Below, in pieces: positions 37,296-42,500 of a stretch of DNA of 64,000 bases. Under the pieces are notes generated by a model, which was not told the DNA's origin, did no database searches, and was given only the letters and a program-made list of their open reading frames with translations. A program made the translations under genes and the position numbers. The first letter of the stretch is position 1; every line of letters begins with the position of its first letter. This stretch comes from Candidatus Electrothrix aestuarii (lineage in GTDB: Bacteria > Desulfobacterota > Desulfobulbia > Desulfobulbales > Desulfobulbaceae): the NCBI GenBank assembly GCA_032595685.2, contig CP159373.1:2005001-2069000 (forward strand), given 5' to 3'.

Positions 37296-37919
37296 ATGGC
37301 CGTCTCGACTGGATTTTTGATTTATACCACCTTGTATCGTCTGAGCATACTGGCAGTCGGTGCGCTGACTATATGGCTGGGATTTCGTTTGTTCAACAAA
37401 ACCGAAAGCAAGGCGTATGACGACACAGGTTCAGTCAGCGCAGAAGGCAAGGGCTTCAAGCTGGCTCTAACCAGTATTCTGCCCGGAACCTATTTCGCCC
37501 TGTTCGGCACGGTGATCATCAGCACCATGCTCTGGAAAGGCGAGCCGCCGCAGTTGAGCGAAAAGCAGGTTGTTGAACAGCCCGGTAAAGCAACCGTGTC
37601 TTCGGAACGATTGATGCGGAAGCCGGACTGCCGAGTTAATCTCGACGGCATGTCTGATGAATGGGAGACTCTGGGCAGGCCCGGCCTGCCCCTGACTGAA
37701 GCTGCAGGGCCGTTGCACAGGATTGCCTGTTCTTATTGGCACAAAAACCGCATCGGCGAGGCGGTGTCAATGGCAAAGCTGGCGGCTTTGTACGGGAAGG
37801 AAGAGGATAAGACGGAGCATCTTGCTCTGCTGGCCGAACTGCTTCGGGCGAACGGCGATGAGGAAGAGGCGGCCAAGACTGAGCGGGCCATTGAAGCGTT
37901 GCGGAGGCGGGGACAATGA
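37296..37919 (+). CDS. Two-helix membrane protein of unknown function
   Basis: 207 residues, not recognised. Hydrophobic helices at about 8-27 (IYTTLYRLSILAVGALTIWL) and 54-76; the C-terminal 110 residues are helical and Ala/Glu-rich with a TPR/SEL1-like spacing (GEAVSMAKLAALYGKEEDK, LALLAELLRANGDEEEAA). It overlaps the caspase gene by four bp (ATGA), so the two are likely translated together and may act together at the envelope. Confidence 0.75.
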   Translation: MAVSTGFLIYTTLYRLSILAVGALTIWLGFRLFNKTESKAYDDTGSVSAEGKGFKLALTSILPGTYFALFGTVIISTMLWKGEPPQLSEKQVVEQPGKATVSSERLMRKPDCRVNLDGMSDEWETLGRPGLPLTEAAGPLHRIACSYWHKNRIGEAVSMAKLAALYGKEEDKTEHLALLAELLRANGDEEEAAKTERAIEALRRRGQ

Positions 37920-39662
37920 AACGTGTGTTGCTGCTGATTGCGCTGACAGTTCTGCCTGCGGCGGCGCAGGCGCAAGAGAGCTTTGGTCGCTTTCATGCTT
38001 TGGTGATCGGTAACCAGAATTACCGTTATCTGACCAAGCTGAAAACACCGAAAGCTGATGCTGAAGCGGTTGCCAAGGTATTGCAGGACCAGTACGGCTT
38101 CACGGTGGACTTGCTGCTGGACAAGAGTCGGGCCGAGATCTTATTGGCGCTGGCCCGGTTGCGTAAGACCATGACCTCAGAAGAGGATAACCTGCTGATT
38201 TACTATGCCGGGCACGGTTACCTGGACGTGCCGACCGGCACCGGCTACTGGCAGCCCGTGGATGCGCAGACTGACAACACCGTCTATTGGATTCCGACCG
38301 ATGAAATCACCCGCCTGCTCAGGGCGATTCGGGCCAGGCATGTCCTGGTGGTGGCGGATTCCTGCTATTCCGGTAGCCTGCTGATGCGGGACTCCGGGGC
38401 GCGGTTACCCACAGGCGTGGAGCGGGATGAATGGTTGCATCGGATGCAAAAACGGCGGTCACGCACTGCCCTAACTTCCGGCGGCGAGGAGCCGGTTGCG
38501 GACGGTGGCGGAAGCGGCCATTCGGTCTTTGCCAAGGTCTTTCTGGAGGTGTTGCTGGAGAACAAGGGGATTCTGGACGGCGACAGACTGTTTGACCGGA
38601 TCAAAACGCCGGTTGCTGCCAATGCGGAGCAGACACCCTTCTATGGAATCATCCGCATGACCAATCATGATATGGGGGATTTCCTGCTGGTGCCCAAGGA
38701 GCTTCAGGAAGTGGTCTTGCAGCAGCAGACGGGTAAGGTGGATTTAAGCTGGTTACGGAGGGGAGGGCAGGAAGGTAGAAGAATCGGGAAATATATTAAT
38801 CATGGCGATGGCACGATCACTGACACGAAAAGTGGTTTGATGTGGAAACGTTGTTTGGAAGGTTTGTCAGGTGTGAAGTGTGAAGAGGGAAAGGTGAAAA
38901 AATATGAATATGATGAGGCTGTGCAGCGTTTCAAAGGTGTCGAATACGCAGGCTATACTGATTGGCGGCTACCGACTTTTGATGAATTAAAAAACTTGGT
39001 GCATTGCACTCACCATTCGCTCATTTCAAAACGCAGTTCGGAGAATTTCACCAAACCTGACTAAAAAATCCTGATTTCGATGTCAGAGACGGTGAAATTC
39101 GTTTTATGTGACAACAAATTTCTCGCCCTTCAACATGTGGAGCGAAAAACTATCTGAAATTGATTTTGCGCAAAAAAACGATTCACGCAATTACAGAGAG
39201 TTAAAAATTCCTCAAACTGCAAAAAAAATAAGCGAATGGGGAGATTGCAGCAAGGGAGTAAACAAATATGGTCAGTGCAACTATGATGAGTCAGAAAAGG
39301 TGACGATCAACCAGCAGGTTTTTCCAAATGCTGAGGCAGGCTACGCTGTCTGGGCGGGGTCACGGTATGCTGACCACCCTGACGGCCCGTGGTACGTTGA
39401 TTTCTTCTACGGCGAGTCCTTTATCAAAGGCCGCACCAACTACTATCCGGTCCGTTTGGTGCGAGACGGTCAAGTTGAGGATGCCATGATCATTAAGGAA
39501 ATACAGAAAGCACTGATGAGTTACGGATTTAATCCTGGTCCGGTTGATGGTAACTACAGCAAGCAGACCGAGCAGGCTCTGCGGGCTTTTCAGAGGGCCG
39601 CCGGTCTGCCGGAAGGTGGAGGCATGACAATTGAGACACGGGAGGCATTGGGCTTCTATTAG
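37916..39662 (+). pseudogene. Secreted caspase-like protease - DUF1566 - peptidoglycan-binding protein, split by a MITE
   Basis: Removing the 235-bp MITE at 39009-39243 and one 6-bp target copy leaves 502 codons in a single frame. Residues 1-19 are a signal peptide. The peptidase C14 (metacaspase-like) domain has the catalytic His100 in YYAGHGY and Cys150 in ADSCYSG. A DUF1566 domain begins near 295 (HGDGTITDTKSGLMW) and is interrupted after LVHC; beyond the MITE it resumes with SKGVNKYGQC and ends RLVRDGQ. A PG_binding_1 domain closes the protein (IQKALMSYGFNPGPVDGNY). As it stands the frame stops at 39064, giving 382 residues with the protease intact but half the DUF1566 and the wall-binding domain lost. 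Confidence 0.9.
39009..39243. mobile_element. 235-bp MITE inserted in the caspase-DUF1566 gene
   Basis: The ends are inverted: CTCACCATTCGCTCATTT on the left against CTCCCCATTCGCTTATTT on the right (reverse complement), 16 of 18 matching, with weaker pairing beyond (GCAGTT, GAATTT). It is flanked by the direct repeat ATTGCA (39003-39008 and 39244-39249). The uninterrupted site GTGCATTGCAGCAAGGG is present in the related gene at about 40088-40105, confirming the boundaries. It encodes no transposase. Confidence 0.9.
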
Positions 39663-39850: not shown

Positions 39851-40326
39851 ATGTCATCGAAAGACACAACTATCGGGCAATATATTGATCATGGCGACGG
39901 CACGATCACTGACACTGAAATCGATTTGATGTGGAAACGCTGTTTGGAAGGCCTTTCCGGCGTGAACTGCGAAGAGGGAGAGGTGGAAACATATACATGG
40001 GATGATGCGGTAACGCGTTTTAAGAGTGTTGAATATGCCGGTTATAAAGACTGGCGGCTGCCGACTATTGATGAACTGAAAACCTTGGTGCATTGCAGCA
40101 AGGGGGGGAAGACAAAAAGACCGGTCGCTGCAACGAAGGGTCGGAAAGACCGACGATCAATCAGAGGGCTTTTCCGAATGCTGAGGCATTCTACGTTGTC
40201 TGGTCCGGGTCGCCCTATGCGAACATCTCGGTCAGCGCGTGGGGCGTCAGTTTCTATGGCGGCAGTTCCTACCTCGACTCCCGCTACGGCTTTAACGCGG
40301 TCCGGTTGGTGCGCGGCGGACAGTGA
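39851..40326 (+). pseudogene. Single-domain DUF1566 protein, frameshifted in a G-run
   Basis: The first frame carries HGDGTITDTEIDLMW, the GYKDWRLPTIDELKTLVHC signature, then breaks at the G7 run at 40099-40105. The +1 frame resumes DKKTGRCNEGSERPTINQRA and ends RLVRGGQ at 40326. An eighth G gives 158 continuous residues. Start at ATG 39851 with GGAG upstream. About 80% similar to the DUF1566 domain of the upstream caspase gene, so a tandem duplicate. No signal peptide is seen. G7 is either a sequencing undercall or a phase-variable tract. Confidence 0.8.
40189..40326 (+). other. Candidate variable region of a diversity-generating retroelement target
   Basis: In the last 45 codons of the DUF1566 gene about 20 positions end in C or T (TAT, AAC, ATC, GTC, AGC, GGC, AGT, TAC, CTC, GAC, CGC ...), mixed with invariant TGG, GCG and TCG codons. 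This is what adenine mutagenesis of an AAC/AAT-rich template produces, and it lies at the 3' end of a C-type-lectin-like domain, the usual target. No reverse transcriptase or template is in this window. Confidence 0.45.
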
Positions 40327-40365
40327 TTTTGTTTTTTGCCTTTCTCGAAATGCCCCGGTCATCCC

Positions 40366-40428
40366 ACCTCTGCCCTGATTGCCAATCCCTTGAAGAACTG
40401 GCGCAGCATAAAAGCGTCAGGGGAACGT
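40366..40428 (+). pseudogene. 63-bp fragment of an MscS (YbdG-like) gene
   Basis: Reading TSALIANPLKNWRSIKASGE, it matches TYALIANPFKNWRGMKESGG of the MscS gene at 36704-36766, also at DNA level. No start or frame extends beyond it. It appears to be left over from the duplication that created the second DUF1566 gene. Confidence 0.75.
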
Positions 40429-40431
40429 TTT

Positions 40432-41478
40432 TTATATGAAAAACTCCTGCAAATGAGGTGCGGTGTGGAGCATCTTGCCTAACTGCTCTACTTTCTCCGG
40501 CTGCGAGAGGATGGTGTAATAATCATCCTTGATTGTAGGCGCAAGGAGGCAAGCTTCCTGCCATTCTGAGCGGGAAAATGGTTCCTGCCGAAGAGCATCC
40601 CAAAACCCGGTGACCTCAAAGAGCTGGTTAATCCGCTCGGTGCCTTTTCCATAAAGATGGCTGACCAAATAGGTTGCCATTCCTACCTGGAGACCATGCA
40701 GACGTGGTTTTTCACAGATGCGATCAAGTGCGTGAGAGATCAAATGCTCGCTGCCACTGGCAGGGCGGGAAGACCCGCAGATTTCCATAGCAATACCATT
40801 GAGCATTAACGCCGTTGCGAGAAGCCTCATGCCTTCCAGGTCATGTTCAGGTTTGGCCATCAATTGGAAGACTGTTGCGTCAGACAGGAGTGCCGCAAAA
40901 TCGTCAACTTGAGCTCCCTTGATTTTGAAAGCTAATTTCCAATCCTGAACCGCTGTAATCTTGGAAACAAGATCGCCAATACCGGAAAGCCAGAGGATTT
41001 TAGGTGCCTGCAAACAGACCTCCGTGTCCACAACCACTCCATAGGGCATAGCTGCCGGGAAGCTTCGTTTTTTGCCTTTCAGATCAAGGCTACATTGTGG
41101 ACTGCAAAACCCGTCATTGGACAATGCTGTGGGAAGAGCGATATAGGGAATCCTTTGCAGGAAGGCGACATATTTGGCCATATCAAGAGCTTTTCCGCCG
41201 CCGCAGCCGATGATCAAATTAATCTTGGCCATGTCTTCAAAAATATCCTGGGCCTGCTCAAAGCTGGAGTCTACAACAGATATTTCCTGGACAAGATGGA
41301 TCTCTTCATTCTTGAGCGCATATCGGATGCGGGCCATAAAGCTTTCATCAAGCCCTTCACTAGAGATGCAAAGAACCTTTGTGAATTGCCCTCTGGCTGC
41401 ATACACTCCGATGCGGTCAAGAGCGCCTGGCTTAATCCGTACCAGTGGCGGGATATTTATCGAGGTGTTTCGTATCAT
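40432..41478 (-). CDS. Glycerol-1-phosphate dehydrogenase-like iron-containing dehydrogenase
   Basis: 348 residues of the iron-containing alcohol dehydrogenase superfamily, closest by eye to the sn-glycerol-1-phosphate dehydrogenase (EgsA/AraM) branch. NAD binding: LIIGCGGGKALDMAKYVA; then ALPTALSNDGFCSPQCSL, typical of that branch; metal ligands in GIGDLVSK, SGSEHLISHALD and PRLHGLQVG. It would reduce dihydroxyacetone phosphate to G1P, the archaeal-type glycerophosphate. It shares an ATGA overlap with the upstream HAD phosphatase. A different polyol-phosphate substrate is possible. Confidence 0.82.
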   Translation of the reverse strand: MIRNTSINIPPLVRIKPGALDRIGVYAARGQFTKVLCISSEGLDESFMARIRYALKNEEIHLVQEISVVDSSFEQAQDIFEDMAKINLIIGCGGGKALDMAKYVAFLQRIPYIALPTALSNDGFCSPQCSLDLKGKKRSFPAAMPYGVVVDTEVCLQAPKILWLSGIGDLVSKITAVQDWKLAFKIKGAQVDDFAALLSDATVFQLMAKPEHDLEGMRLLATALMLNGIAMEICGSSRPASGSEHLISHALDRICEKPRLHGLQVGMATYLVSHLYGKGTERINQLFEVTGFWDALRQEPFSRSEWQEACLLAPTIKDDYYTILSQPEKVEQLGKMLHTAPHLQEFFI

Positions 41479-42152
41479 GATGCGGGACCTTCTTTGAGCA
41501 AGGTCTCAGCCACCTCTGACCACTGTTCAAAAGGGCGAAACTCTTGGTTCATTGTATGCAGTTTATTTGCAAGCCAGCTTTTTGCAAAACGCTTATCTGG
41601 TTCAACGAGCAAGGCTGCCGCCAAGTCAGGTTTTCCGTCTCCGGCAAAAGCAACTTGGCTGTAGTTTTGTTGCGCATGTTTGACAACAGCAGCTTTATCA
41701 ATGCCAATCTCTTTGCAGAAAAAAGGAGAGTGGAGCGGCAAGGTCATTTCTAATCCTTTGCCGGGAATAAAATGGCCTGGATTCGAATGAACCGGGATAT
41801 CAACATCCTTTTGGGAGAGGAGCTTGGTGATGTACCAGGCACAGCCCGCTGAAGCAACAGCGACCTCCCAGCCTGCCTGGGCAAGCTTGTCGATAAGCTC
41901 TTTAAGGCGTGGCTCTATCCTCATCTTATCCATCAGGTCCAGGAGGGTGCTCTCATCCGTTTTGAGAGAGGAAAACATGCGCTGGAGCGCTTCAAAATGA
42001 GTAATTTCATTGTTTTCATACTGCTCCCATGCCCCTAATTGGAGAATGTGTGGGAACTTCTGACAGAGCAGCTCGTAAAAGTCGCGCTGCGTCATGGTGC
42101 CATCAAAGTCGCTGATAAGTATGGATGCCTTTTGTTGTTGATCGATACTCAT
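41475..42152 (-). CDS. HAD-IB phosphatase (phosphoserine phosphatase/MtnX-like)
   Basis: 225 residues. Motif I SDFDGTMTQRD (Asp15 nucleophile, Asp17), motif II ASAGCAWYI, motif III/IV FAGDGKPDLAAAL. The small helical cap and length fit the MtnX/SerB-like group. The ATGA overlap with the G1P-dehydrogenase-like gene means the two are translated together, so its substrate may be the dehydrogenase's product or a derivative. Upstream, 42153-42272 has no gene. Confidence 0.85.
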   Translation of the reverse strand: MSIDQQQKASILISDFDGTMTQRDFYELLCQKFPHILQLGAWEQYENNEITHFEALQRMFSSLKTDESTLLDLMDKMRIEPRLKELIDKLAQAGWEVAVASAGCAWYITKLLSQKDVDIPVHSNPGHFIPGKGLEMTLPLHSPFFCKEIGIDKAAVVKHAQQNYSQVAFAGDGKPDLAAALLVEPDKRFAKSWLANKLHTMNQEFRPFEQWSEVAETLLKEGPAS

Positions 42153-42272
42153 AAAAAGAAGTTCTTGAATGTATTCGGGAGCACAAAAAAATAAGCGTGA
42201 TAAGCGTGGCAGAGTCAGGGCAAAACCACGCTTGAGCAGTATCCTCTTGAGGGAGGCAATATCCAGCTGGCT

Positions 42273-42500
42273 TTACACTTCCTGCACCATATAGCTGCAC
42301 TCCGCAATAATATCCTCACGGTCATGAGGACAGTCTTCCGGTTGTACATTGGGGCATTCTGCATCATACCACCTCTTGCCCGCCAGTGTCATAGCCTCAT
42401 CCTTAGATGCAGCTTCCACGGTGTATCTCTGCTGCTCCATCTTGCAGGTGCAGGTCTCGGCTCGTTTTCCTGGTGTAACTTTTACCGTGTATTTTGGCAT
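42273..42500 (-). CDS. Small cysteine-rich protein of unknown function
   Basis: 75 residues with an AAGGAG nine bases before the ATG, so probably real. Cys residues come as CTC, then AECPN, EDCPH and AECSY; the middle reads YTVEAASKDEAMTLAGKRW, like the small DUF-type domains with an alpha-beta fold that modify or bind RNA or metals. No signal peptide or family recognised. Confidence 0.65.
   Translation of the reverse strand: MPKYTVKVTPGKRAETCTCKMEQQRYTVEAASKDEAMTLAGKRWYDAECPNVQPEDCPHDREDIIAECSYMVQEV

What the first reader, a model, noticed from the sequence alone, without database searches (positions are those of the whole stretch)
39003..39249. Precisely delimited MITE breaks a secreted caspase and removes its wall-binding domain
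A 235-bp element with inverted ends and a 6-bp ATTGCA duplication lies inside the DUF1566 domain. Excising it restores a 502-codon frame exactly, and the paralogue downstream preserves the empty site. The disrupted protein keeps its signal peptide and caspase domain but should no longer bind peptidoglycan, so this could alter where the protease acts.
Basis: seen in the sequence. Interest (0 to 1): 0.62.

Follow-up and report, generated by a model that had tools for sequence, protein, structure and literature searches.

The report
Small transposon splits cable-bacterium caspase gene
A 235-base non-autonomous transposon, a known kind of selfish DNA, has landed inside a gene for a caspase-like protease in a cable bacterium and cut it in two; it is a clean but ordinary example of transposon damage.

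Summary
A 235-bp element (39009-39243) with 18-nt inverted ends and a perfect 6-bp duplication (ATTGCA) interrupts a 501-aa frame. It is a MITE: 7 full copies and 1 split copy lie in this genome, and matches occur in 6 of the 8 genomes held from its genus (Candidatus Electrothrix, cable bacteria) but in 0 of 49 other relatives. Thirteen of 17 full copies have 6-bp, AT-rich duplications. The likely mobiliser is an IS1634-family insertion sequence with the same ends; its best copy, in a sister genome, is itself split by another MITE. Only a broken relic was found in the window's genome, so this MITE is probably stranded. Thirteen homologues (12 loci plus the local paralogue) pass the site without the insert. 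The 'loses wall binding' reading is weak: two syntenic orthologues with open frames end at the Lcl_C domain, without a peptidoglycan-binding tail, and the insertion also cuts Lcl_C. Simple gene disruption is the best reading. New member of a known kind; modest interest.

The parts
37296..37919 (+). Upstream ORF (207 aa), conserved neighbour of this caspase gene
   Evidence: ORFs similar by eye lie directly upstream of the orthologues in G001 (L162), G007 (L163) and G003 (L165); no Pfam match
37916..39064 (+). Truncated ORF, 382 aa: hydrophobic N-terminus, caspase domain (Peptidase_C14, residues 27-241), first part of Lcl_C (299-368); 364 native codons, the last 18 residues read wholly or partly from the MITE
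39003..39008 (.). Left target-site duplication ATTGCA
39009..39243 (+). MITE, 235 bp, ends shared with an IS1634-family IS
39009..39026 (+). Left terminal inverted repeat, with a private C-to-A change at its 4th base
39226..39243 (-). Right terminal inverted repeat
39244..39249 (.). Right target-site duplication ATTGCA
39108..39662 (+). Orphaned 3' part of the gene: rest of Lcl_C plus PG_binding_1; its mechanical ORF begins with a GTG inside the MITE, with no clear ribosome-binding site at the usual spacing (by eye)
39851..40326 (+). Lcl_C-only paralogue that keeps the empty site (ATTGCA 40092-40097), itself frame-broken near a run of seven G

Best explanation
A non-autonomous MITE whose ends match those of an IS1634-family insertion sequence was moved in trans by that kind of transposase into the Lcl_C domain of a caspase-like gene (probably secreted) of a Candidatus Electrothrix (cable bacterium), duplicating 6 bp of target. 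A stop codon inside the element ends translation after 364 native codons plus 18 residues read wholly or partly from the element; the 3' part (rest of Lcl_C plus PG_binding_1) is orphaned. The gene is most likely a fairly recent loss-of-function or truncation allele in a redundant, changing family of caspase and Lcl_C proteins. The MITE is probably no longer mobile here, because no intact partner transposase was found in this genome and this copy's left end is mutated. Shown: structure, copies, duplications, empty sites, an IS with the same ends. Inferred: that this IS's transposase moved it, that the product is lost or impaired, and that the element is stranded.
For: Copies and boundaries. 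Duplications: 13 of 17 full copies, GC 0.18 in the duplications against a mean of 0.46 in the flanks. IS with the same ends: G007:40143-42306, CTCCCCATTCGCTCATTT at both ends, duplication ATTGAA, transposase pieces matching NF033559 IS1634. Published IS1634 features are 5-6 bp AT-rich duplications and 1500-2000 bp length (PMC2266710, passages); the G007 IS is 1940 bp without its nested 224-bp insert, counting that insert's repeated flank. Frame and empty sites. No intact partner found in G000.
Against: The MITE shares only about 18-22 end bases with the IS; the interior gave no other substantial match, so mobilisation by this IS is inferred. Intact IS1634-type transposases with other ends exist (two in G003, 55% identical; five near-identical copies in the window's genome), and whether they could act on these ends was not tested. 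Four of 17 full copies lack the duplication; one abuts sequence identical to an IS91-type end, the other three are unexplained; of three split copies one lacks it. No expression or read data.
Confidence: 0.88

Rival explanations
1. Functional truncation: the MITE yields a stable, shorter caspase freed from its C-terminal binding domains, and this form is selected.
For: The caspase domain is complete and the truncated frame is open. The G001 orthologue has an in-frame stop between caspase and Lcl_C, so truncation between or in these parts occurred twice, if that MAG is right. Precedent: a Microcystis sbp gene split by a MITE, with the MITE transcribed within the gene (PMC11448079, passages).
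Against: No selection or expression evidence. The downstream paralogue is also broken, which fits decay. The orthologues in G007 and G003 keep Lcl_C in an open frame (43-free frames).
Confidence: 0.08
2. Reversible switch: precise excision restores the full gene in some cells of the population.
For: Exact duplication and an exact frame on joining.
Against: No intact partner transposase was found in this genome; the left end of this copy is mutated; no reads were available to look for excised molecules.
Confidence: 0.02
3. Assembly artefact: the repeat was misplaced into this gene.
For: Repeats can be misassembled; a frame break near a run of seven G in the next gene could be a sequencing error.
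Against: A perfect 6-bp duplication of this gene's own sequence and two private substitutions in this copy are not expected from misplacing another copy.
Confidence: 0.02

Closest known systems
IS1634-family insertion sequences and their non-autonomous derivatives
   Same: 6-bp AT-rich target duplications; ends shared with an IS whose transposase pieces match NF033559
   Different: No transposase; interior not shared with the IS; the published family end pattern C-----YT (PMC2266710, passages) is met at C1 and T8 but not at Y7 (A here)
187-bp ISL3-type MITE in the sbp gene of Microcystis (PMC11448079, passages)
   Same: A MITE splits the later part of a gene for a binding protein; the partner IS was found by shared ends and duplication length
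   Different: Other IS family, host and gene; there transcription was shown, here nothing experimental
MITEs of prokaryotes in general (review PMC10969869, passages)
   Same: 50-500 bp, inverted ends, mobilised in trans; insertional inactivation is a listed effect
   Different: A family in cable bacteria; searches for MITEs or mobile elements in these bacteria gave no paper that describes one: none; two papers and none, listings only; four papers, passages of two seen; only 10 of 3,737 listed

Membership tests
MITE | Short (about 50-500 bp), repeated, no transposase gene | tested here: met
   232-236 bp in 17 full copies; no ORF of 60 aa or more lies wholly inside the window copy
MITE | Terminal inverted repeats | tested here: met
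   18 nt, 89% complementary
MITE | Target-site duplication | tested here: met
   6 bp in 13 of 17 full copies and in 2 of 3 copies split by another element
MITE | Ends match an autonomous IS | tested here: met
   G007:40143-42306; that copy of the IS is itself interrupted, and no intact copy with these ends was seen
MITE | Movement by that IS's transposase | not testable with these tools
   needs a transposition assay
IS1634 family (partner IS) | Transposase of the IS1634 family | tested here: met
   NF033559: 451-aa piece E 9.4e-57, 193.1 bits, above the cut-off of 100; 150-aa piece E 2.4e-22, 79.6 bits, below it. Pfam DUF4277 matched the larger piece only below its cut-off
IS1634 family (partner IS) | 5-6 bp AT-rich direct repeats, 1500-2000 bp | tested here: met
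   ATTGAA, 6 bp; 1940 bp without the nested insert, counting its repeated flank (criteria from PMC2266710)
IS1634 family (partner IS) | End pattern C-----YT | tested here: inconclusive
   C1 and T8 met, position 7 is A; the paper calls the ends poorly conserved
Structured RNA element | Covarying base pairs | tested here: not met
   Folds better than 200 shuffles (z -5.78 and -7.06), but 0 of 54 predicted pairs show a kept change on both sides (one strand only); the inverted ends probably explain the fold

The most novel reading that the evidence does not exclude
Breaks at the border between the caspase and its C-type-lectin-like (Lcl_C) part repeatedly free the protease from its binding half in cable bacteria, making the protease/binding split a selected, variable trait of these filaments.
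Probability: 0.04. Interest if true: 0.5.

Novelty: new member of a known kind. Interest (0 to 1): 0.2.

Why it matters
It documents a genus-level MITE family and a likely IS1634-type partner in cable bacteria, whose closed genomes have been screened for IS elements but, as far as the searches here show, not for MITEs. The published Ca. E. scaldis study used ISEScan and a repeat screen above 250 bp (passages of PMC10926707); by length that repeat screen would pass over a 235-bp element. The effect on biology is probably one damaged member of a redundant gene family.

Tried and rejected
RNA element: the only Rfam match in the window is a tRNA elsewhere; strong single-strand folding but no covariation. 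IS91-type parent: the split copy at G000:4934254-4935821 first looked like an autonomous parent, but its IS91-family gene is a nested insertion, since the interrupted MITE resumes where it stopped; two other split copies carry an ISKra4-like gene (109 bits, below the curated cut-off of 205) and an IS1380-family gene. Diversity-generating retroelement target: the Lcl_C half after the site is more variable than the half before it (51% against 78% identity to the local paralogue), but a DNA search of the whole genome with that stretch found only itself and the paralogue; motif prints from the reverse-transcriptase loci (9 of 12 loci printed one) showed none I would call DGR-type (motif knowledge recalled), which is a weak test. 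Independent translation of the 3' part: no clear ribosome-binding site at the usual spacing before its GTG, by eye. Plasmid or phage carriers: no match. A general literature search listed 15 of 1,692 papers, all on unrelated eukaryotic or tool topics; the pair caspase and DUF1566 gave one Leptospira paper, listing only.

Other MITE copies in genes: joining flanks for the 17 copies gave the 501-codon frame here; for the other 16 the longest printed frame that starts before the site was 223 codons. Which of those are real genes was not examined.

Full report
What is there. The window lies at 2005001-2069000 of a single-contig 5.11-Mb genome. Its genus is Candidatus Electrothrix: contigs of same-genus handles have the lengths and match positions of named records of Ca. 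E. aarhusensis MCF (G004) and Ca. E. gigas AU1_5 (G002). The species of the window itself was not determined.

The element. 39009-39243 is 235 bp, begins CTCACCATTCGCTCATTT, ends with the near-complement, and is flanked by ATTGCA on both sides. A search of the same genome gave 9 matches: 7 full copies and 2 halves of an eighth copy split by another element. Among 57 genomes (own included) 6 have matches: 6 of 8 in the genus, 0 of 49 outside; the two without are one 69%-complete genome and one 95%-complete single-contig genome. Seventeen full copies (7 from the window's genome, 10 from relatives) align with mean column identity 94%; three split copies and two cut-off or partial ones were left out. 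Thirteen of the 17 have an exact 6-bp duplication; re-pairing right flanks among copies reached at most 6 matches in 2000 trials. The duplications are 18% GC against 46% in the flanks. Of the 4 without, one (L002) abuts 30 bases identical to the end of the nested IS91-type element; the other three are unexplained. Of the three split copies, two have a 6-bp duplication. No match was found in the plasmid or phage collections.

The partner. An exact scan of the genome collection (one genome for each of 84,980 species) for the end motif gave 51 stretches. Besides Electrothrix, several from Desulfobacter and Desulfamplus resemble the IS beyond the end motif, or its transposase; many others are single hits in scattered taxa that look like chance. 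In the sister genome G007, 40143-42306 has the motif at both ends in inverted orientation, the duplication ATTGAA, and two pieces of a transposase matching NF033559 (IS1634 family): a 451-aa piece above the cut-off and a 150-aa piece below it. The pieces are separated by a 224-bp insert with other ends and a 9-bp repeat of its own, so this IS is broken too. In the window's genome the only match to the larger transposase piece is a relic with three stops; a DUF4277 search found that relic and five near-identical copies of another IS1634-type element, which lack these ends within three mismatches at their borders. G003 has two open 55%-identical transposases whose ends differ. So the MITE shares ends and duplication length with an IS1634-type IS, and no intact partner with these ends was seen in this genome or in the other seven of the genus.

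The gene. With one ATTGCA kept, the flanks form a 501-aa frame: hydrophobic N-terminus (signal peptide by eye), caspase domain, Lcl_C (DUF1566) and PG_binding_1. With the insert, translation ends after 382 aa, 364 codons of them native. Twelve homologous loci picked from those fetched, plus the local paralogue, pass the site without the insert (13 of 13); in one of them (L165) the first aligned piece goes only 7 bases past the site before a small gap. Three of the twelve (G001, G003, G007) have an ORF directly upstream that is similar by eye to the window's neighbour. The G007 orthologue (467 aa) ends just after Lcl_C with no PG_binding_1, and the G003 frame ends at the same place (not Pfam-scanned). 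The G001 orthologue has an in-frame stop at codon 295, between caspase and Lcl_C. The local Lcl_C paralogue is frame-broken near a run of seven G. The same genome has 20 Lcl_C matches, counting the pieces of the interrupted gene and of the paralogue, and two other relatives of the caspase part by tblastn (L046, 60% over residues 1-308; L158, 35% over 4-359). This pattern fits damage to one member of a redundant, changing family better than a new location for the protease.

Age. This copy differs from all 16 other full copies at two columns, one of them in the left end. The orphaned 3' part stays in frame to its stop over 413 bp. Both suggest a fairly recent insertion, not dated further.

Literature. 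All papers were seen as passages or listings only. PMC2266710 (passages) gives IS1634 features; PMC11448079 (passages) is a close precedent in Microcystis; PMC10969869 (passages) reviews MITEs; PMC10926707 (passages; the words MITE and caspase do not occur in its main text) and PMC10030654 (passages) report IS elements in cable bacteria. Searches for cable bacteria or Electrothrix with transposon, insertion-sequence, MITE or caspase terms (only the top of long lists) showed no description of this element; subscription journals are mostly not held.

Noticed in passing
L138:2990-3213 (G007); matches in G000 and G007: A second MITE-like family (224 bp here, ends GGGTGCGGCTCTT, 9-bp duplication in this copy) is nested in the IS1634-type IS; one search gave 14 matches in G000 and 30 in G007, matches on both strands of one place counted apart. 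An ISKra4-like IS with the same ends sits inside a copy of the first MITE in G003.
   Followed up: partly
L010:1255-2822: An IS91-family element lies inside a copy of the MITE with no duplication evident at its junctions by eye; the same end sequence lies directly beside another MITE copy (L002).
   Followed up: partly
window 39250-39480 and 40098-40323: The Lcl_C half after the insertion site is more variable than the half before it (51% against 78% identity between the two local copies), as in hypervariable lectin-like proteins; no template repeat was found in the genome by DNA search.
   Followed up: partly
L162:1489-2889: The caspase orthologue in G001 has an in-frame stop at codon 295 between the caspase and Lcl_C parts.
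   Followed up: no
window 40098-40110: A run of seven G in the downstream Lcl_C paralogue coincides with a frame break: a real mutation or a sequencing error.
   Followed up: no
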